Part shown: piece by piece, positions 1,540 to 47,199 of the stretch
Layout: every line of letters starts with the position of its first letter
Numbering within the stretch: position 1 is the first letter of the stretch
Assembly (NCBI GenBank): GCA_027488135.1
Contig: JAIYCH010000011.1
Span: forward strand, 1 to 64,000
Length of the DNA stretch: 64,000 nucleotides
From: Saprospiraceae bacterium
GTDB taxonomy: Bacteria; Bacteroidota; Bacteroidia; Chitinophagales; Saprospiraceae
Reading direction: 5' to 3'
Notes under the pieces: generated by a model
What the model saw: the letters and a program-made list of their open reading frames with translations, nothing else
Told to the model about the DNA's origin: nothing
Databases searched by the model: none
Position numbers and translations under genes: made by a program

Positions 1540-3231
1540 TTAGAAACCTTTTTGATAGCCAGGTCCTTTGATAAAGCGTCCAGGTCTTTCCTCTGTAGGC
1601 TCCCCATTTAATAGCACCAATTTACCATTTACCCAAACATTTTTCACACCGACCGCATACTGATGAGGATTTTGAAAATCAGCTAAATCGGCTATTTCTT
1701 TTGGATCGAAAAGGACAAGGTCTGCAAAATATCCTTTTTTCAAATAACCCCTTTGTGCAATCCCCAATCGTTCACAAGGCAGTGCAGCTAATTTTCTCAC
1801 TGCCTCTTCGAGTTTAATGACCTTTTCATCACGTACATATTTCCCAAGTAGTCTGGCAAAATTTCCATAAGCACGCGGATGAGTGCTTGACTTAAGAAAT
1901 ACCCCTTCTGAAGCAGGAGCGCCAGCATCAGAACCAAAACTAACCCATGGCAACTTAATTTGTTTTTTTACATTCTCCTCATTCATTAAAAAATAAACAG
2001 TGCCTACGCGGGAACTATCTTGAATCACCAGATCAATTGCCGTTTCTTCGGGACTTTTCCCTCTTAAAGTTGCCACCTCTGCCAATGTTTTACCAGTATA
2101 TTTTTTTAAGGAATCTTGTTTGAAATCGACTAATAAAAGCTTATCAGGAGAACCAGCGGAGGCATATAAATTTTCCCAGTCATTAGCATTTATTTTCATT
2201 TGGGCAATTACCTTTTTCCTAATATTAAGATCCTTTAATCTTTTTGCCCACTCCCCAAAACCACCCTCCTGAACCCATGGAGGCATTGCTGCATCAAGGC
2301 CTGTAGCCCCAGCGATATAATTATACATATTAGCAGCAATATCAATTCCTTGATTTCTAGCCTTATTGATACTTGTAATTACTTGGTCCATTTTTGACCA
2401 ATTATCGATACCTGCAGCTTTCAGATGATATATTTCAGCTTTCACTTTTGCCTTTTCAGCCAGTTTAATGACACTTTGAACAGACTCCTCCAATCTATTT
2501 CCTTCACTTTTCATGTGGGTAATATACAAACCATTGTAAGGAGCCATAGCCTGACAAAGGGCTAAAATCTCCTCTTCGTCAGCATAAAAAGCGGGGGCAT
2601 AAATAAGAGCAGAAGATAAACCCATTGCACCTTCATTCATTGCTTGTTTAACAAGGAGTTGCATGTTTTTTAACTCCCCATTTGTGGGTTTCCTATTTTC
2701 ATAACCTAATTCATGAATTCTTAGGGAGGTAGCACCAACAAAAGAAGCAATATTTGGAGAAACGCCTTTTTTTTCGAGGCCAGTTAAATATTCCCCTAAA
2801 GTACGCCAATAGACCTCATATTTAATATCTCCCTGACCATCTAATTCTTCCTTTTTCATGGCTTCATTCAAAGGTCCCATGGAATTTCCTTCTCCCATTA
2901 CTTCAAGTGTAACCCCTTGTTTTATATCACTCATTGCTCTGCCATCAGCGAGTAAGGAGACCGTTGCCCAAGAAAGCATATTGACAAAACCGGGACTAAT
3001 AGCCAGACCTTTGGCATCAAATTCTTTTTTGCCCTTGTTCATTTTTAAGTCTCCAATAAAGGCTATCGTATCTTTATTAATGCCAATATCCCCTTTAACA
3101 GGAGTATTACCAGTGCCATCAAAAATGACCGCATTCCTGATGATTACATCATATTCAAGTTCTGATGAACAAGACTGAAAAAACAAACTTAAGAGCAATA
3201 TGGAGAAGCTCAAAAAATTATCTGCCTTCAT
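1540..3231 (-). CDS. N-acyl-D-amino-acid deacylase-like amidohydrolase (lipoprotein)
   Basis: This is a 563-residue amidohydrolase-superfamily protein of the D-aminoacylase family, which removes N-acyl groups from D-amino acids using a zinc site in a TIM barrel. A hydrophobic leader ending at Cys21 suggests a lipoprotein, although the lipobox (FQSC) is not ideal. His240 (ITHMKSEGN) and His270 (IYHLKAAG) match the zinc ligands, and Asp436 in GSDAG matches the catalytic aspartate. The HxH usually found after PGFID is absent: the segment reads GFVNMLSW at 81-88. The bridging cysteine region (GNCG in classical enzymes) reads VMGEGNS, so Glu may substitute. I recall a Bacteroidota subfamily with this pattern, so it is probably functional but variant. 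It is followed by a serine hydrolase gene on the same strand and is divergent from a VPS10-type propeller gene. Confidence 0.85.
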   Translation of the reverse strand: MKADNFLSFSILLLSLFFQSCSSELEYDVIIRNAVIFDGTGNTPVKGDIGINKDTIAFIGDLKMNKGKKEFDAKGLAISPGFVNMLSWATVSLLADGRAMSDIKQGVTLEVMGEGNSMGPLNEAMKKEELDGQGDIKYEVYWRTLGEYLTGLEKKGVSPNIASFVGATSLRIHELGYENRKPTNGELKNMQLLVKQAMNEGAMGLSSALIYAPAFYADEEEILALCQAMAPYNGLYITHMKSEGNRLEESVQSVIKLAEKAKVKAEIYHLKAAGIDNWSKMDQVITSINKARNQGIDIAANMYNYIAGATGLDAAMPPWVQEGGFGEWAKRLKDLNIRKKVIAQMKINANDWENLYASAGSPDKLLLVDFKQDSLKKYTGKTLAEVATLRGKSPEETAIDLVIQDSSRVGTVYFLMNEENVKKQIKLPWVSFGSDAGAPASEGVFLKSSTHPRAYGNFARLLGKYVRDEKVIKLEEAVRKLAALPCERLGIAQRGYLKKGYFADLVLFDPKEIADLADFQNPHQYAVGVKNVWVNGKLVLLNGEPTEERPGRFIKGPGYQKGF

Positions 3232-34651: not shown

Positions 34652-35725
34652 TCAAATCAAAGGACAAACCCTTACCGTTTTAAAACGAGGTATTTTCTTG
34701 ATTACATAATGCACAAAAATTTCAGGATCCGCCTGACCCGTTGGCAGAACACCTGTCTTTGTCAGATTAATATCATAACTAAATCCAGCTCTGACATTAC
34801 GATAAAGCATTTCAATAGATGGTGCAATCCTATTACCAATTTCCCGTTGTTGATAGTTAACATTTAAGTCAATGGCAAAGGTATTCCCTGGATTTTTATC
34901 TAAATAAACCCGGAAACCAGCGCTTGCCATCCACTCACTATACGCTGCCTGTGTAACAAAGATGAGATTAGAGGTAAGATCAATATTATTTGAAACCTGT
35001 AAAACCCCCATTACATAAGGATTTAATCGCATGGGAACTTTTGACACAGCGCCAGGAAAGAAACTGGTATTTGGCGAAAACAAATGATGAACACCCACGC
35101 CAATATCTAACTTACTTCGTTTATTCAAAAGATCAACTAATTGTCCCCTTTGATCTGCCTGGATTCTAATATTTGCTCCCATTCCGGCATCAAAAAATAT
35201 TTTCGATAAATCCCAAAGTCCTTCTCCATTTGGAGCAGAAGCATTTACACCATTGATTGATGGGTCATATTGACGATCAAATAACAATGCACCAGGGTCA
35301 AAACCTCTCTGATTTCCGCTAAGGTTGAATCCAATGGTGCCAAAAACCTTCGGGCTGAATTTTTTAGTGTACCCTCCACCGACAAACAATCCTGTTTGTT
35401 GTAAACGTGAATCACCTGCCAAATCATAGGTTAACCCGCCATTTAATGACCAAAATTTGTCATCCTCCAAATAAGAAGGTAATTTGGTATCAAAAGATAG
35501 CGTAACCGTTTTGTAATCAACGGGAATTTCTCTCCATTGATTTCTGGCCTGAAACATCAATCTGGTATCTCCGTTGAATACACCAGATAATCCTGGCGAA
35601 ACTTGCAAAGGGTTCCTAAAAAACTGGGTAAAATGAATATCTTGAGCCATTACCTTGGTAGATAAAAACAGCAAAACCCAAAACAAGGAAAATAATTTTG
35701 AAATCTTTTTGTAAATTTTCATCAT
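34652..35725 (-). CDS. PorP/SprF family T9SS outer-membrane protein
   Basis: A 357-residue outer-membrane beta-barrel of the PorP/SprF family. A signal peptide ending KVMAQ leads straight into the family hallmark DIHFTQFFRNPLQVSPGLSG, followed by the FQARNQWREI segment and alternating beta strands to the C-terminus. SprF-type proteins are needed for secretion or surface attachment of type B CTD (CHU_C) substrates. This is the first gene of the operon, followed by the PD40/OmpA protein and the adhesin that it presumably serves. Generic family assignment only: P. gingivalis PorP and F. johnsoniae SprF are both relatives. The ATG at 35725 has a second in-frame ATG immediately after it. Confidence 0.9.
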   Translation of the reverse strand: MMKIYKKISKLFSLFWVLLFLSTKVMAQDIHFTQFFRNPLQVSPGLSGVFNGDTRLMFQARNQWREIPVDYKTVTLSFDTKLPSYLEDDKFWSLNGGLTYDLAGDSRLQQTGLFVGGGYTKKFSPKVFGTIGFNLSGNQRGFDPGALLFDRQYDPSINGVNASAPNGEGLWDLSKIFFDAGMGANIRIQADQRGQLVDLLNKRSKLDIGVGVHHLFSPNTSFFPGAVSKVPMRLNPYVMGVLQVSNNIDLTSNLIFVTQAAYSEWMASAGFRVYLDKNPGNTFAIDLNVNYQQREIGNRIAPSIEMLYRNVRAGFSYDINLTKTGVLPTGQADPEIFVHYVIKKIPRFKTVRVCPLI

Positions 35726-39202: not shown

Positions 39203-39296
39203 TTTGATTTATTTTTTCTAAAAAATTGATTTGAAAGGGTTACAAATCTTTACTAATTCGTACTTTTCAGCTAAGTTAAAAAAAATACCCTTGAAA

Positions 39297-41138
39297 ATGT
39301 CATTCCTCAAATACACCGCCATCATTTTTTTATCAGTGATAGGTTCAAAAGCCTTGTCTGGTCAGATAAATAACATCGATCCTTATCAGGTTGCCATTCA
39401 ACAAATAAGAATGACATCTAATGAAAAATCAATTATTCCATTTAAAAAACTAGAGACACTATCTATTACGCACCTGGTATTGGGCAAGGCACAAGTTCAA
39501 ACCAACGTTTTTAGTAATCAATTAGACAAGTATGCCTCTGTCAGTCATTATCAACTCCCTCTTCAAGATAATCTCCAAAATCTTGACATTTGGTTAAAAG
39601 CGAGAAAATCCGCTGGTGATAATGCCTTTATTATCGAAATCTGGACTGCTGAAAATTTTAGCAAAGATAAATTAATCCAAATAAAAACATTATTTGATGG
39701 TTTGCCAGTGGTCATTGTAAACTTCGACTCAGAATATTTTGACCGTAAGGATGAAATTGGAAATAGTGTGAAATTTGACATTCAAACCCTTTCCGGTTAC
39801 TGGCACCAATCTTTAGCAGCACAACTTATTTTTGGAGGCTTAAGCATTGAAGATGGAAAGGAAACAAAGGGGGTCCGACTTGGATATTCACCAGTGGCCA
39901 GTGTTGACATGAAGGCGAATATCCTCCATGATAGTATTAAATTTATCATAGAAGAAGGTATTGCAGCCAAAGCATTTCCCGGTGCTCAGGTTCTCGTGGC
40001 CAGAAAGGGCAAAATTGTGTACCATGAGGCGTTTGGCAAACACACTTATGAGGGGGAACAAAAATTATCTACAAATGATATTTACGATATGGCCTCCGTT
40101 ACTAAAGTTAGCAGTGGCCTTGCTGCGTTAATGAAGTGGTATGGAGAAGATAAATTAGATTTAGATGCGCCATTAAGTACCTATTTGCCGGAAGCAAAAG
40201 GAACGAACAAAGCTGATCTAAAAATGAGAGATATACTGACGCATCAAGCCAGATTAAGGGCCTGGATTCCCTTTTGGAAAGGTACTTTAGTGGGAAACAG
40301 CAGGAATCCATGGCAAAAAAACTGGAATAATAATCGAAATAATGATTATAGGTTTAAGGCAAAAACATTCAGATTACAAGCGACAAAAAATTATTCTATT
40401 GAAGTACCGGGCGGCTTATGGTTACATAAAAATTATCCGGATAAAATGGCCTCCCATATTTTTAAGTCTCCCCTTAATACTAAACCTGGGTATGTTTACT
40501 CCGATTTCTTTTTTATACTGATGCCTAGATTGGTCAAAGCGCAGACGGGGCAAGAATTTGAAAGTTATATTAAAACCCAATTTTACAAACCATTGGGCGC
40601 TAATACACTGACTTGGAACCCATTGCGGTTTTTCGATACCACTCAAATTGTGCCCACAGAAAGAGATACTTTTTTTAGAATGACCCTTTTACAGGGAAAT
40701 GTACACGACGAAGGTGCCGGTATGTTAAACGGTATTTCCGGTCATGCAGGTTTATTTGGTTCTGCCAATGACTTAGCTAAATTAATGCAGTTATACCTTA
40801 ACAAAGGTATTTATGGCGGAGAAAGACTTATCGGGGAGAAAGCTTTTGATGAGTTTACCCGCTGTCAATTCTGCCCTGATAATTATCGAGGTGTAGGTTT
40901 TGACAAACCGTTCGTTCAATATATTCCTGGTAAAAGTTCCATTGCAAAAGATGCTTCTCCTGAAAGCTACGGTCACAGCGGATATACAGGTACTTTTGTT
41001 TGGATAGACCCCAAAGAAGAGCTGATTTACATTTTCTTATCCAACCGAGTATATCCTACCAGAGAAAGCAGGGCTATTTACGATTTGAATATCAGACCGC
41101 GCATCCAACAATCTATTTATGACGCGTTGAAAAATTAA
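39297..41138 (+). CDS. Exported serine hydrolase with an orphan GH3 C-terminal-like domain
   Basis: A 613-residue protein with a signal peptide (to about SGQ), an alpha/beta region at ~28-200, and a beta-lactamase-fold serine hydrolase domain at ~205-613. The serine hydrolase motifs are SVTK at 267-270, YSD in GYVYSDFFF, and HSG in YGHSGYTGT. Residues 28-200 resemble the C-terminal domain of family 3 glycoside hydrolases as it occurs in Bacteroidota GH3/beta-lactamase fusions. It starts with an ALxxI-type helix and SIIPFKKLETL and ends in GVRLGYSPVASVDM. The catalytic GH3 barrel that normally precedes it is absent. I start at the ATG at 39297, directly before the signal peptide; a TTG at 39231 would add 22 residues. 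It may act on peptidoglycan fragments, as the fusions are thought to do (inference). Confidence 0.82.
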   Translation: MSFLKYTAIIFLSVIGSKALSGQINNIDPYQVAIQQIRMTSNEKSIIPFKKLETLSITHLVLGKAQVQTNVFSNQLDKYASVSHYQLPLQDNLQNLDIWLKARKSAGDNAFIIEIWTAENFSKDKLIQIKTLFDGLPVVIVNFDSEYFDRKDEIGNSVKFDIQTLSGYWHQSLAAQLIFGGLSIEDGKETKGVRLGYSPVASVDMKANILHDSIKFIIEEGIAAKAFPGAQVLVARKGKIVYHEAFGKHTYEGEQKLSTNDIYDMASVTKVSSGLAALMKWYGEDKLDLDAPLSTYLPEAKGTNKADLKMRDILTHQARLRAWIPFWKGTLVGNSRNPWQKNWNNNRNNDYRFKAKTFRLQATKNYSIEVPGGLWLHKNYPDKMASHIFKSPLNTKPGYVYSDFFFILMPRLVKAQTGQEFESYIKTQFYKPLGANTLTWNPLRFFDTTQIVPTERDTFFRMTLLQGNVHDEGAGMLNGISGHAGLFGSANDLAKLMQLYLNKGIYGGERLIGEKAFDEFTRCQFCPDNYRGVGFDKPFVQYIPGKSSIAKDASPESYGHSGYTGTFVWIDPKEELIYIFLSNRVYPTRESRAIYDLNIRPRIQQSIYDALKN

Positions 41139-41139
41139 A

Positions 41140-42525
41140 TCAATTTTTGATGGGCTGAAAAAGATTTATTCTTACCCCCGATTGAAAAGAAACCGTTGAA
41201 ATACGGTCATTGTAGGGACCTATACCTTTACTAACGTGTCCTACAAAAGATTGATAGCTCGATTGTGCGAAAATACTTGTTCTTGGTGAAATCATCTTTT
41301 CAGCTCCAACTCCCATGTCCATAGATAAATATATGTTATCAATGAGCGTTCCTCCCTGCATTAATCCCTCTTCAAGATTTTGATAAACACTATTGGTTTT
41401 ACCCGTTAAAGCAACGGAGGAGGGAAAAAATCCTGGGTGGACAATAAAGTAATTTGCAGAGAGCGTGACTTGAGCCGTAGCACCCAAAGAAGCGTAAAGA
41501 CGCCAATTTTCTTTGTGAACAATATTGAAACGGGTAAATACAGGAATTTGTAAAAGATTTAGCTGAATTTTCTTTAATTGCTCAGTAGTGTAACCATCTC
41601 TTAGACTACCTTGTATAAAGGTGACCGCTGGGGCATTGTACTCTTTATGCGCAAAAATGAATCCAAAGCCGGTTTCTAAACGTTTTGCTCCCTCACTTAG
41701 TAAGAAACCAAGATGAAAACCTGATGAATTTCTGATGGTTTCAGGAACTTTAAATCTTGGGTAGGCCGGGGTAAAAACATTATCACCGTCTAATCCAGTT
41801 AATAAGGTTAAATGCCATTTCCCAAAATCAAGTATATTGTTAATATAAATTTTTCTTGTCCCAATGGGGATGTGTCTTGATGTTAAAGTAGGAATTTGAT
41901 TTACCTCAGGGAAAGATTCTAAAGAAACGGGTGACATTTTAAGAATTATTGGAGACGAGCTTTGAATAGGCTCAACTTCTAATAGTCCTTTTTTGGGTAG
42001 TAGTTTATTTACCTCCTCATAAGATTGATTATCTGATACCTCTGACAATATTCTATCTAGCTGATTATCATTAAGTTTATTTTGAATATTGTTTTCTACT
42101 ACTTTAATTTCCGTTGTTGCAGAGGAACTTTTATCAACAGATACTTTAGTTCTATTTTCCAGATTGATCGATTGGGAGGTAGGTACCTGCCGAATGACTC
42201 CTACATGCAAACACGTAAAGAACAATAAAACGGCCATGGTAACTTCCATGGCTTTAAACCATATAATCTTATTTTCATTTCTTTTGATATGGGAATAGTA
42301 AGAATGAAAATGCCCCCAGGCGTGCCTTTCATTTGTAGGAAAAATGAATTGATTTAATTTTTCATGAATGTTTTGGTCAAACATTTTTTCCGCATCAGTC
42401 TGATCATCCAACAAAGCGTCATTCCATTTTTCAGAAAAATTTTTCCATGCATCTTTAGGAACCTTCGTTTCCAGAGATTCCAGTTTATCCTTCAAAAATT
42501 GGTCCATTTTTTCCTCTTCCATCAT
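41140..42525 (-). CDS. Putative dual-membrane-spanning anti-sigma factor
   Basis: A 461-residue protein with three parts. Residues 1-85 are cytoplasmic and carry two copies of a short helical motif (11-39 and 54-82), each with KL, a proline or nearby polar turn, then AWxxF. A single membrane helix lies at ~89-111, and a polar linker at ~112-225. From ~228 to the end, alternating beta strands look like an outer-membrane barrel domain, with the last strand VSFQSGVRINLF near the C-terminus. This topology would span inner membrane, periplasm and outer membrane. It is translationally coupled (TAATG) to the upstream ECF sigma factor, so an anti-sigma function is likely. I recall dual-membrane-spanning anti-sigma factors from Bacteroides thetaiotaomicron (Dma type) with this layout. 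No catalytic motif is visible. Confidence 0.72.
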   Translation of the reverse strand: MMEEEKMDQFLKDKLESLETKVPKDAWKNFSEKWNDALLDDQTDAEKMFDQNIHEKLNQFIFPTNERHAWGHFHSYYSHIKRNENKIIWFKAMEVTMAVLLFFTCLHVGVIRQVPTSQSINLENRTKVSVDKSSSATTEIKVVENNIQNKLNDNQLDRILSEVSDNQSYEEVNKLLPKKGLLEVEPIQSSSPIILKMSPVSLESFPEVNQIPTLTSRHIPIGTRKIYINNILDFGKWHLTLLTGLDGDNVFTPAYPRFKVPETIRNSSGFHLGFLLSEGAKRLETGFGFIFAHKEYNAPAVTFIQGSLRDGYTTEQLKKIQLNLLQIPVFTRFNIVHKENWRLYASLGATAQVTLSANYFIVHPGFFPSSVALTGKTNSVYQNLEEGLMQGGTLIDNIYLSMDMGVGAEKMISPRTSIFAQSSYQSFVGHVSKGIGPYNDRISTVSFQSGVRINLFQPIKN

Positions 42526-43076
42526 TACCTCTGCTTCAATAAAATGTTTTGTAATTTGAGTCTTGCCTTCACCAAATTTGATCTTGACGTACTTTCATTA
42601 ACATCAAGTAATTGGCTAATTTCTTTATGCGAATAACCTTCAATGACATATAAATTAAAAACGGCGCGATAGGAGGGAGAAAGTTGCTGAACGGCGTCTA
42701 AAATTTCCAATTCTGAGAAACGGCTCACTGCATCCGCATCAAAGCTGGCCACATGACTTGCCTCGTCCATATCCGAAGTTCTTCTGCGCATATTTGACCG
42801 ATAATAGTCAATAGAAGTATTAACCATTATGCGTCTAATCCAGGAAACCAAAGAAGTACCCGGCTGAAAAGAGTGAATATTCCTTAATATTTTTATGAAG
42901 CCTTCGTGCATAATGTCGAGAGCATCATTTTCGTTATTAGCGTAACGCATACAAACCCCCATCATACGCGCATAATACTCTTCATAAAGGGCTTGTTGCG
43001 CCCATTTCTCTCTGCGTATGCAAGCTAAAACCACATTTTGTTCAGCATCCCAACTGCCAGGAATTACTAATTCCAT
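42525..43076 (-). CDS. ECF-type RNA polymerase sigma factor
   Basis: A 183-residue sigma-70 family protein with only regions 2 and 4. Region 2 spans about residues 25-95 (YEEYYARMMGVCMRYANNENDALDIMHEGFIKIL, SWIRRIMVNTSIDYYR) and region 4 about 125-178 (LSPSYRAVFNLYVIEGYSHKEISQLLDVNESTSRSNL). No signal-receiving extension is present. Its stop overlaps the start of the membrane protein that probably restrains it. The regulon is unknown; no matching promoter was recognised in front of its own gene. It lies 63 bases downstream of a small orphan gene that follows metH. Confidence 0.92.
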   Translation of the reverse strand: MELVIPGSWDAEQNVVLACIRREKWAQQALYEEYYARMMGVCMRYANNENDALDIMHEGFIKILRNIHSFQPGTSLVSWIRRIMVNTSIDYYRSNMRRRTSDMDEASHVASFDADAVSRFSELEILDAVQQLSPSYRAVFNLYVIEGYSHKEISQLLDVNESTSRSNLVKARLKLQNILLKQR

Positions 43077-43139: not shown

Positions 43140-43520
43140 TTAATTGGCGTGATTTTTTAGCAGCACTTCATTTTCCGCATCGAGCCGTTTAAAAAAATGA
43201 ATAATTTGTTCAATTAAATATCTTTCCTGGGCTTCAGGTCCTTCCACCGGACTTTTTGTTACCCGGTCGTAATGTGGCCATCCGTCCGCATCTCTCCCTT
43301 TAAACACATAAATTCCTTGCTGACTCAATAACTCACAAATAGCAATATGCATTAAATCTTGCTTTTCTTCCTTTGTGTAAGTTTTTTGCCAACGACCTAA
43401 AATTTGAATGCCCACCAGCAGCAAAACGGCATTAAGATCAGGAAGTTCAGGTTTCTTAAAAGCCTCTTTTATTTGATTTCTAATTCGAAGCCAATCAAAA
43501 TTTATTTCCCATTCTTCCAT
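43140..43520 (-). CDS. Small conserved hypothetical protein (126 aa) after metH
   Basis: I recognise no family. The protein is acidic to neutral, helical, without signal peptide or membrane helix, and rich in Trp (WEINFDWLRIR, GRWQKTY, DGWPHYDRV). The gene starts one base after the metH stop on the same strand, so it is probably translated from the metH message. The sigma factor gene follows 63 bases further. A role with methionine synthase is possible by position only. Confidence 0.65.
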   Translation of the reverse strand: MEEWEINFDWLRIRNQIKEAFKKPELPDLNAVLLLVGIQILGRWQKTYTKEEKQDLMHIAICELLSQQGIYVFKGRDADGWPHYDRVTKSPVEGPEAQERYLIEQIIHFFKRLDAENEVLLKNHAN

Positions 43521-43521
43521 A

Positions 43522-46500
43522 TTAGTTGTTATAATTTAGATTTGGAGAAAGCCATTTTTCAATAATCTCCAAAGACATATCTTTTCTATCTGCATAATCT
43601 TCCACCTGATCTTTAGATATCTGACCAACGCCAAAATAGGTAGAGGCAGGATTTGAAAAATACCAACCGCTCACAGAAGCAGCAGGATACATGGCAAAAC
43701 TTTCGGTTAAAATAATACCCGTTCTCTTTTCTACTTCAAGAAGTTCCCACAACTTCTCTTTTTCAGTATGATCTGGGCATGCAGGATAACCTGGAGCTGG
43801 TCTAATACCCTGAAAATCTTCTTTTAATAAATCGATGGCAGAAAAATTTTCATCTTTAGCATACGCCCAGGTATCCGTTCTTACCCATTCGTGTAATTTT
43901 TCAGCCAGGGCTTCTGCCAATCTATCAGCCAGCGCTTTAAGTAAAATAGATTGATAATCATCTAAATTCTCCAGAAAATAGGCATCCATTTTCTCGATAT
44001 TAAAGCCTGCGGAAACGGCAAAAGAGCCAATAAAATCAGGTTTGCCTACTGGAGCAATGAAGTCGGAAAGTGACCTATTTGGCTGTCCGGGTGCTTTTTT
44101 AAGTTGTTGCCTCAAACACTGCAAGCGCATTTTTTCAGTGGTTCTCTCTTCGTCGGCATAGATAATAATATCATCTTCTGTCCCTTGATTTGCTGGAAAA
44201 ACACCCCAAACAGCTCTGGCCTCGAGCCAGTTTTCATCAACAATTTTTTTGAGCATGGCATTGGCTTCTACAAAAAGTTTCGTTGCCTCCTCCCCTACGA
44301 CAGCATCTTTGAGAATATCTGGATATTTACCAGCCAGTTCCCAAGAGCTAAAGAAGGGTGTCCAATCGATGTAAGGAACTAATTCATCTAATGGGAAAGG
44401 AATTTTTTCCTGTATCCCTCCCTTTTTTGGCACTGGAGGCGTGTAAGTAGCCCAATCCATGGTCCATTTATTTTTTCTGGCTTCTGCAATAGGAAGAAAC
44501 TGTTTTACCTGTTCTCTCCCTACTCTTTGCTCCCTGATTCTATTGTTTTCAGCTCTGACATCCAGAATGAAATTACTGCTAACGTCTCCTTGTTCACTAA
44601 GTAAATTACTGACCACTCCCACAGCACGGGATGCATCTAATACATGGACTACGGGACCCTTATATTTAGGTTCTATTTTTACCGCTGTATGGGTTCGACT
44701 GGTTGTTGCGCCACCTATCAGCAACGGAATAGTAAATCCAAGACGCTGCATTTCACTGGCAAGGTGAACCATTTCATCTAAGGAAGGCGTAATCAGACCT
44801 GATAATCCAATAACATCTACTTTTTCCTCTTTTGCTCTTTGCAGAATTTTATCAGCGGGTACCATAACCCCCAGATCAACAATATCATAATCGTTACAAC
44901 CGAGAACAACACCAACAATATTTTTACCAATATCGTGTACATCACCCTTTACAGTAGCAAGCAAAATTTTACCTTTTGCCCGACTATTCCCATTTTTATT
45001 TGCTTCAATATAAGGCGTTAGCCAAGCTACTGCCTTTTTCATTACCCGGGCACTTTTAACTACTTGGGGAAGAAACATTTTACCTTCACCAAATAAGTCA
45101 CCAACGTAATTCATGCCATCCATCAAGGGGCCTTCAATAACAGACAAAGGTTCCGCTACTTGCGTGCGTGCCTCTTCAACATCCTCATCAATATAGTCTG
45201 TAATTCCCTTTACTAAAGCATATTTAAGTCTTTCATTAACAGATTGATTTCTCCAGGAGAGATCTTTCTGAATCGACTTTCCTGCATCCCCTCTAAGAGA
45301 CACGGCTAAATCAGTTAATCGCTCGGTGGCATCTGCTCTTCTGTTAAAAAGCACATCTTCCACTTTTTCGAGTAAATCGGGTTCAATATTAGAATAAATA
45401 TCCATCATCCCGGCATTTACAATACCCATATCCATGCCAGCACGAACAGCATGATAAAGAAAAGCGGTGTGCATTGCCTCTCTTACCACTTCATTTCCTC
45501 TGAAGGAGAAAGAAATATTACTTACTCCACCACTAACTTTGGCACCAGGGCAAAGTTTTTTTATCTGACGGGTAGCTTCAATAAAATGAATCGCATAATC
45601 ATTATGTTCCTCAATGCCAGTAGCTACGGCAAAAATATTAGGATCAAAGATGATGTCTTCAGGAATAAAACCTACCTTTTGAGTAAGCAAATCATAGGCT
45701 CTCTTACAAATATCTACTTTTCGTTCCACGGTATCGGCCTGACCCAACTCATCGAAAGCCATAACCACTGCCGCCGCACCATAACGACGAACCAATTTAG
45801 CTTGTCTTAAAAAAGCTTCCTCCCCTTCTTTTAATGAAATTGAATTTACGATACATTTGCCCTGAACGCATTTTAAACCAGCTTCAATGACAGAAAACTT
45901 TGAGGAATCAATCATTATGGGAAGCTTTGCGATATCGGGTTCGGACATAACAAGATTTAAAAATTCCACCATAGCTTGTTCCGAATCGAGCAAACCCTCA
46001 TCCATATTTATATCAATGATTTGGGCTCCCCCTTCTACTTGTTGTTGGGCGACTTTTAGGGCTTCCGTGTAATTTTTCTCCCGAATTAATCTTGCAAATT
46101 GCTTGGAACCCGTAACATTTGTTCTTTCACCCACATTAACAAAATTTGTTTCGGGGCGAATGACCAGAGGTTCCAGACCACTTAACGTAGTGTAATGGCT
46201 TCTAGGTGTTCGTTTTCTTGGAATAATACCCTTAACTGCTTCAGCCATAGCCTGAATGTGATCGGGCGTTGTTCCACAGCAGCCACCCACTATATTTACG
46301 AAACCAGAAGAGGCAAATTCCTTAATATACTGCTGCATTTCTGAAGCACCCTGATCATATTCTCCAAACTCGTTAGGCAAACCTGCATTAGGATATGCGG
46401 AGATATAACAGTCTGCCAAATCAGATAATTCCTGGAGGTAGGGTCTCATTTCTGTTGCTCCCAAAGCACAGTTTAAACCTACACTTAAGAGAGGAATATG

Positions 46501-47199
46501 GTTAATAGAGGCCCAGAAAGCACCAACGGTTTGTCCTGAAAGGGTCCTTCCGCTGGCATCGGTGATGGTACCAGATACCATAACAGGAAGACGGTCGCCT
46601 ACCTCCTCAAATAATTCTTCAATGGCAAAGAGCGCTGCTTTTGCATTAAGGGTATCAAAGATGGTTTCCACGATGAGGGCATCACAACCACCGTCCATTA
46701 ATCCTTTTGCCTGTTCATAGTAAGCCTCTTTAAGTTCGTCAAAAGACACCCCCCTGAAACCAGGGTTATTTACATCGGGGGAGAGCGAAGCTGTTTTATT
46801 GGTTGGACCTATTGCCCCTGCAACAAAACGAGGTTTTTCTGGTGTTCTTTGATTGAATTCATTTGCTGCCTTTCTGGCTATTTTTGCAGCCTCAAGATTC
46901 ATTTCATAAGCCAGGCTTTCCAAATGATAATCGGCTTGGGCTATTTTTGTAGCACCGAAGGTATTTGTTTCCAATATATCGGCACCGGCCTCCAAGTAGG
47001 CACGATGAATAGCTTCAATTATATGGGGCTGGGTAAAAACAAGAATTTCATTATTTCCTTGAATATCGTATGCATGATTTGCAAATCTAGTACCCCGATA
47101 GTCCTTTTCCGTTAGTTTATATTGTTGTATCATTGTGCCCATGGCACCATCAATAACTAGAATACGGTCTTTAAGTAAAGCTTCAAGCCTAATATTCAT
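43522..47199 (-). CDS. metH: Cobalamin-dependent methionine synthase
   Basis: A full-length 1225-residue MetH that transfers a methyl group from methyltetrahydrofolate to homocysteine through cob(I)alamin. Domain order is normal. The homocysteine-binding barrel is at ~1-330 (DGAMGTMIQ, zinc cysteines including [10 protein letters not shown]). The pterin-binding barrel is at ~350-630 ([23 protein letters not shown]). The cap and B12-binding Rossmann domain are at ~650-890 ([15 protein letters not shown] with the cobalt-ligating His). The AdoMet-binding reactivation domain is at ~920-1225 ([15 protein letters not shown]). No cobalamin riboswitch fits in the 94 bases upstream. It heads a likely operon with a small orphan gene. 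Confidence 0.96.

What the first reader, a model, noticed from the sequence alone, without database searches (positions are those of the whole stretch)
41140..43076. ECF sigma factor coupled to a protein that appears to span both membranes
The sigma factor stop overlaps the start of a 461-residue protein with a cytoplasmic N-terminus, one membrane helix (~89-111), a periplasmic linker and a beta-barrel-like C-terminus with an outer-membrane-type final strand. This would let an outer-membrane event release a sigma factor without a separate receptor or TonB system. I recall Dma-type dual-membrane-spanning anti-sigma factors described in Bacteroides thetaiotaomicron. A member here, with a duplicated cytoplasmic motif, would extend that class to another Bacteroidota lineage.
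Basis: partly seen in the sequence, partly recalled or inferred. Interest (0 to 1): 0.72.

Follow-up and report, generated by a model that had tools for sequence, protein, structure and literature searches.

The report
Anti-sigma factor spanning both membranes
A bacterium of the Saprospiraceae carries a gene-control pair in which one protein appears to hold a transcription switch inside the cell while its other end sits as a barrel in the outer membrane, so that a disturbance at the cell surface could reach the genes through a single molecule; the class is known from gut Bacteroides, and this example comes with a predicted set of target genes that can be tested.

Summary
An ECF sigma gene (42525-43076, minus) overlaps by one base (TAATG) a 461-residue protein (41140-42525). 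The fold prediction gives two cytosolic helical hairpins, the second running into one membrane helix, a disordered tether (114-230) and a confident eight-strand barrel (233-457) matching OmpA-type outer-membrane barrels (VIA Z 17.7). [quoted passage not shown] It is not unique to this genome: the pair is found throughout the Saprospiraceae (80 of 80 sigma loci fetched) and in other Bacteroidota families (29 of 29 survey loci have the sigma gene directly upstream), and the linked sigmas form one supported clade. The 'duplicated motif' is a tryptophan hairpin module present in 1-5 tandem copies in Saprospiraceae and apparently once elsewhere. New here: a sequence shaped like an ECF promoter (GCAGC-N16/17-CGTT) precedes the sigma gene in 72 of 80 loci and recurs before a conserved lipoprotein (21 of 24 genomes) and a polysaccharide deacetylase (19 of 30). 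In the window's genus it is missing at the sigma gene, which follows metH, but retained at those targets. Anti-sigma activity, dual-membrane topology and the release signal are untested. New member of a known class.

The parts
42525..43076 (-). ECF sigma factor gene, 183 aa, regions 2 and 4
   Evidence: 94-100% identical in the genus; in the clade of barrel-linked sigmas with 99/96 support
41140..42525 (-). Dma-type dual membrane-spanning (predicted) anti-sigma factor, 461 aa
   Evidence: homologues with the same architecture
42523..42527 (-). TAATG overlap of sigma stop and anti-sigma start (translational coupling expected)
   Evidence: read directly from the sequence; same -1 overlap in the six genus genomes
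42409..42516 (-). cytosolic W-hairpin copy 1 (residues 4-39)
   Evidence: helices 4-17 and 26-39; unit profile trained without the genus, E 1.6e-5
42262..42396 (-). cytosolic W-hairpin copy 2, membrane-proximal (residues 44-88), W70 invariant
   Evidence: invariant column; weak on its own in the unit profile (E 0.14)
42193..42261 (-). inner-membrane helix (about residues 89-111), continuous with the hairpin helix 66-111
   Evidence: hydropathy and model
41830..42192 (-). periplasmic disordered tether (about residues 112-232)
   Evidence: pLDDT below 50 through most of 114-230
41155..41829 (-). C-terminal eight-strand outer-membrane beta-barrel (residues 233-457)
   Evidence: Foldseek E 4.1e-8 and VIA Z 17.7 to OmpA
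43140..43520 (-). orf126, 126 aa, no Pfam match, between metH and the sigma gene; context of the pair only in this genus
43522..47199 (-). metH (cobalamin-dependent methionine synthase), same strand, upstream of orf126-sigma-anti-sigma in the genus

Best explanation
The pair is a Dma/Reo-type signalling module. Shown or predicted here: the second gene encodes a cytosolic helical-hairpin domain, one inner-membrane helix, a disordered periplasmic tether and an OmpA-type outer-membrane barrel, next to an ECF sigma with which it is co-inherited across the phylum. Inferred: the cytosolic hairpins hold the sigma inactive; the barrel is inserted in the outer membrane and reports its state (assembly defects, lipid or glycan disturbance, surface attack); the signal passes down the tether and membrane helix, by pulling or by proteolysis, and frees the sigma. 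Inferred from comparative genomics: in Saprospiraceae the freed sigma reads GCAGC-N16/17-CGTT promoters upstream of its own gene, of a conserved lipoprotein of about 260 aa, of a polysaccharide deacetylase and probably of SusC-type receptors, that is, an envelope response. In the window's genus the pair lacks its own copy of that promoter and follows metH-orf126, while the other target sites are kept.
For: Fold: eight-strand barrel, pLDDT mostly 90-97, Z 17.7 to OmpA over 181 residues, Z 15-17 to NspA, OprF, OmpW. Co-inheritance: barrel gene downstream of the sigma in 80 of 80 Saprospiraceae loci, same-strand sigma upstream in 29 of 29 survey loci. Sigma tree: barrel-linked sigmas form a 45-row clade, 99/96. 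Known members match the domain list and are anti-sigma by genetics (PMC13088901; PMC9308784). Promoter: 72 of 80 sigma genes against 2.5% of random 400-nt windows; lipoprotein 21 of 24, deacetylase 19 of 30, background 4.6%, reversed control 0. In the genus, sites keep their place upstream of lipoprotein, deacetylase and SusC orthologues.
Against: No binding, localisation or expression data. The complex was not modelled. AlphaFold2 confidence in the cytosolic hairpins is only about 57-74 for most blocks. pTM is 0.50, as expected with a long disordered tether, so relative domain placement is unknown. The barrel could be cut from the membrane helix after export. That the motif belongs to this sigma rests on its position before the sigma gene and on its -35/-10 shape, not on a bound structure or a transcript start.
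Confidence: 0.82

Rival explanations
1. The protein is exported and processed: the hydrophobic segment is cut by a protease after insertion, so an ordinary outer-membrane barrel and a separate cytosolic or inner-membrane anti-sigma fragment result. Signalling would then not pass through one continuous chain.
For: The tether is long and disordered (residues 114-230), and sequence cannot show whether the chain stays whole.
Against: A tether of this kind is kept in nearly all homologues (alignment). No lipobox or signal-peptidase-like site is conserved after the helix (the Cys at the helix is confined to the genus). Papers on Reo and Dma treat the chain as continuous (PMC13114119, PMC13088901).
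Confidence: 0.12
2. The barrel protein is not an anti-sigma factor but a structural outer-membrane protein that is merely made together with, or under control of, the sigma factor.
For: Outer-membrane proteins are common targets of envelope sigma factors (general knowledge); OMP_b-brl_2 is a broad family.
Against: The cytosolic W-hairpin region before the membrane helix is conserved (W70, K91, E94) although a plain outer-membrane protein has no use for it; a related hairpin signal is found, weakly, in the short 122-aa protein that follows another ECF sigma in this genome (L041, E 0.002); the genetics of Dma2 and of the P. vulgatus homologue show anti-sigma behaviour (PMC13088901, PMC9308784).
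Confidence: 0.05
3. The module is an ordinary inner-membrane anti-sigma factor with a soluble beta domain in the periplasm.
For: Most anti-sigma factors are built that way (general knowledge).
Against: The C-terminal domain aligns over residues 233-456 with solved outer-membrane barrels at Z 15-17.7.
Confidence: 0.02

Closest known systems
Dma family (Dma1/Das1, Dma2/Das2) of Bacteroides thetaiotaomicron
   Same: N-terminal anti-sigma region, one membrane helix, long disordered tether, C-terminal barrel, adjacent ECF sigma gene (domain list quoted from PMC13088901)
   Different: Here the cytosolic hairpin is doubled (1-5 copies in the family); predicted targets are a lipoprotein of no known family, a deacetylase and SusC receptors rather than nigD; no vesiculation phenotype is known; sequence homology to Dma1-3 was not testable
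EcfO-Reo of Bacteroides fragilis and Phocaeicola vulgatus (M0N98_03761/03760)
   Same: Sigma gene upstream of a large anti-sigma with a membrane helix and an outer-membrane barrel; proposed to sense outer-membrane stress; sigma gene strongly induced when the response is on; lipoprotein-type genes in the regulon (PMC9308784, PMC13114119)
   Different: Different lineage; in the window's genus the self-activation site seen in relatives is missing at the sigma gene
FecI-FecR type cell-surface signalling and canonical RseA/RsiW-type anti-sigma factors (general knowledge)
   Same: An extracytoplasmic signal releases an ECF sigma from a membrane anti-sigma
   Different: Those need a separate outer-membrane receptor with TonB, or sense only in the periplasm; here one chain is predicted to reach both membranes

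Membership tests
[quoted passage not shown]
   One-base overlap in the window; barrel gene downstream of the sigma in 80 of 80 Saprospiraceae loci; sigma upstream in 29 of 29 survey loci
[quoted passage not shown]
   Hydropathy and model: helix 66-111, hydrophobic core from about residue 92; topology itself not measured
[quoted passage not shown]
   pLDDT below 50 through most of residues 114-230
[quoted passage not shown]
   Eight strands, residues 233-457; OmpA-type matches, Z 15-17.7
[quoted passage not shown]
   No ECF21 model was available; the sigma falls in a 99/96 clade of barrel-linked sigmas from several Bacteroidota families, but none of those rows is named ECF21
[quoted passage not shown]
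[quoted passage not shown]
   No complex prediction offered; needs two-hybrid or pull-down
[quoted passage not shown]
   Needs fractionation or tags at both ends

The most novel reading that the evidence does not exclude
Saprospiraceae have turned the anti-sigma end of Dma proteins into an adjustable array of 1-5 tandem sigma-binding hairpins, giving each lineage a different number of sigma molecules held per outer-membrane sensor or a different release threshold, and the window's genus has rewired the switch from self-activation to a fixed supply behind metH while keeping the envelope regulon.
Probability: 0.2. Interest if true: 0.72.

Novelty: new member of a known kind. Interest (0 to 1): 0.52.

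Why it matters
How an outer-membrane event reaches cytosolic transcription without a separate receptor is open for Dma proteins: neither signal nor release step is known. This lineage gives a predicted promoter with clear boxes, a small conserved target set that can serve as reporters, a natural series of 1-5 anti-sigma hairpins, and a genus in which the self-activation site is missing at the sigma gene. Together these make the mechanism directly testable in bacteria outside the gut Bacteroides.

Tried and rejected
Genome-wide sequence search with the 461-aa protein found no close paralogue; the other candidate pairs in the genome (L039, L040) were found only through their sigma genes and match neither Pfam nor the family profile. 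An earlier idea that the window's genus uses a spacer one base shorter was dropped: both spacings occur in relatives, by target gene. The motif is not clearly enriched genome-wide in the window genome (15 sites against 7 for the reversed control); only the sites at orthologous genes carry weight. Many sites found in relatives lie inside coding sequence and were set aside. The conserved lipoprotein was tested for being NigD-like: no supporting Pfam family. Family f44 was first taken for Bacteroidaceae; the Bac303 probe was absent, so that claim was dropped. A riboswitch before metH was looked for and not found. The metH context is not general: it occurs only in the six genus loci. Alignments A1 and A2 were too diverse for the collection scan, so the scan used the sigma. 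Plasmid searches gave nothing useful. A sigma-Dma fusion was not submitted to the fold tool, as its rules do not allow changed sequences. No solved structure matches the family by sequence in a meaningful way. No natural sigma-barrel fusion (Dma3-like) was found in the loci.

Full report
What is there. On the minus strand an ECF sigma gene (42525-43076, 183 aa) and a 461-aa gene (41140-42525) share one base, TAATG. The sigma has regions 2 and 4. The 461-aa protein matches OMP_b-brl_2 only weakly (E 9e-4, below cut-off), but 24 of 29 homologues match that family, best 3e-14.

Fold. With 68 homologues taken from named public genomes, AlphaFold2 predicts helices 4-17, 26-39, 44-58 and 66-111, a disordered stretch 114-230, and eight long strands from 236 to 454 with pLDDT mostly 90-97. 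The last cytosolic helix runs into the membrane helix. Foldseek and VIA-align place residues 233-457 on solved outer-membrane barrels: OmpA Z 17.7, NspA 16.4, OprF and OmpW about 15. The hairpins have moderate confidence (about 57-74 for most blocks), and pTM is 0.50, so the domain layout in space is not known.

Distribution. The window lies in a genome of the Saprospiraceae/Haliscomenobacteraceae: the nearest public loci are so named, and the sigma is up to 100% identical there. The 461-aa protein has matches in 33 of the 37 genomes of its family searched, own genome included. A profile search of 395 Bacteroidota genomes matched 95, and all 29 survey loci examined (24 of them outside the family) carry an ECF sigma directly upstream. 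Not all of these are barrel proteins: L064 is 263 aa and too short. In a sigma tree the barrel-linked sigmas form a clade of 45 rows with 99/96 support, the Saprospiraceae sigmas a subclade with 100/98; most other ECF sigmas of the same genome, and three of the survey sigmas (L064, L076, L078), fall outside.

The repeated motif. The cytosolic unit reads roughly FDxxIxxKLxxLxxxYxxxxWxxMExxLD, about 34-50 residues between tryptophans. By an automatic count in 77 homologues, 3 have one copy, 42 two, 24 three, 7 four and 1 five. Nearly identical neighbouring copies in L143 and L123 point to recent tandem duplication. Homologues outside the family reach the membrane helix at about residue 41-54 and show one unit. 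A four-copy homologue is predicted as four helical hairpins followed by the same helix, tether and barrel. In the window protein alone the repeat is marginal (102 of 2000 shuffles score as high). The membrane-proximal copy holds the invariant tryptophan (W70) and is likely the core unit. The same unit profile gives a weak signal in three other proteins that follow ECF sigmas in this genome (L039, L040, L041; E 9e-5 to 2e-3), L041 being a short one of 122 aa, which fits an anti-sigma function.

Promoter and targets. Upstream of the sigma gene, 72 of 80 loci carry GCAGC-N16/17-CGTT; 2.5% of random 400-nt windows do. The geometry is that of an ECF -35/-10 pair, so self-activation by this sigma is the simplest reading. 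The same motif precedes a lipoprotein of about 260 aa (lipidation cysteine C20 invariant, no known family) in 21 of 24 genomes and a polysaccharide deacetylase in 19 of 30, against a 4.6% background and no hit for a reversed control; binomial values are about 1e-25 and 1e-18, not corrected for shared ancestry. SusC-type receptors also carry it in several genera. The first two families were noticed among motif hits before they were tested across the family, so their choice was guided, but the test genomes are mostly independent of the discovery set.

The window's genus differs. Its sigma gene lacks the motif in all seven loci (window and L082-L087), and no copy of the R-GCAGC form occurs in the 64-kb window. 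The pair there follows metH and a small unknown ORF on the same strand, a context seen only in this genus, with no riboswitch found. The sites before the lipoprotein and the deacetylase are present in all seven genus genomes by site sequence, and that before a SusC receptor in six. Gene context was checked in those loci that were fetched: lipoprotein 6, deacetylase 5, SusC 5, besides the window genome. So the target set seems kept while self-activation through this promoter is absent; whether the pair is expressed from metH is inference.

Comparison with known systems. PMC13088901 defines Dma proteins by an N-terminal anti-sigma domain, a membrane helix, a long disordered tether and a C-terminal barrel next to an ECF21 sigma. 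All architectural features are met here; ECF21 assignment is inconclusive and sequence homology to Dma1-3 could not be tested. In P. vulgatus the equivalent pair responds to antibacterial toxins and probably to envelope stress, with the sigma gene induced 33-fold (PMC9308784), and EcfO-Reo controls NigD proteins (PMC13114119). The Saprospiraceae regulon predicted here, with a lipoprotein and envelope enzymes, looks like the same kind of response, by analogy only. The 2024 paper on Dma1 could not be read.

Verdict. A genuine further member of a recently described class. Architecture and co-inheritance are well supported; anti-sigma action, topology and trigger are inferred. The most useful new pieces are the promoter, the target genes and the hairpin copy-number series.

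Noticed in passing
own genome, L040 (C127): sigma 1489-2031 minus, next protein 331-1461 minus: A second ECF sigma followed by a 377-aa protein with one W-hairpin, a hydrophobic segment near residue 47 and a barrel-like C-terminus (..FMATFLGIGYQF); its sigma falls in the barrel-linked clade, and GGCAACC-N16-CGTT lies upstream of the sigma gene.
   Followed up: partly
own genome, L039 (C126): sigma 1465-2031 plus, next protein 2031-3224 plus: A third sigma with a 398-aa follower carrying one hairpin and a membrane helix near residue 48; the sigma is outside the supported clade and the C-terminus was not identified.
   Followed up: partly
L059-L067 (f23) and L068-L081 (f44), upstream of the sigma genes: Related but different promoter-like pairs: GGCAACC-N16-CGTG in f23 and AGGCAACC-N16-TGTAT in f44, in about 5 of 7 loci each; suggests self-activation with drifting promoter boxes across the phylum.
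   Followed up: partly
own genome L167 (C81), 1541-2320 plus, and orthologues L294-L316: Conserved 256-276 aa lipoprotein of no known family behind the predicted promoter in most Saprospiraceae genomes tested; an attractive reporter and candidate effector.
   Followed up: partly
own genome L042 (C61), 743-2588 plus: An outer-membrane barrel protein of 218 aa directly upstream of an ECF sigma whose follower is a 190-aa anti-sigma-like protein with two P..W motifs: barrel and anti-sigma as separate genes.
   Followed up: no
window 34652-35725 minus: PorP/SprF-type membrane protein of type IX secretion.
   Followed up: no
window 39231-41138 plus: Beta-lactamase-family protein of 635 aa convergent with the anti-sigma gene, their ends one base apart; conserved next to the pair in the genus and also seen in L094.
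   Followed up: no
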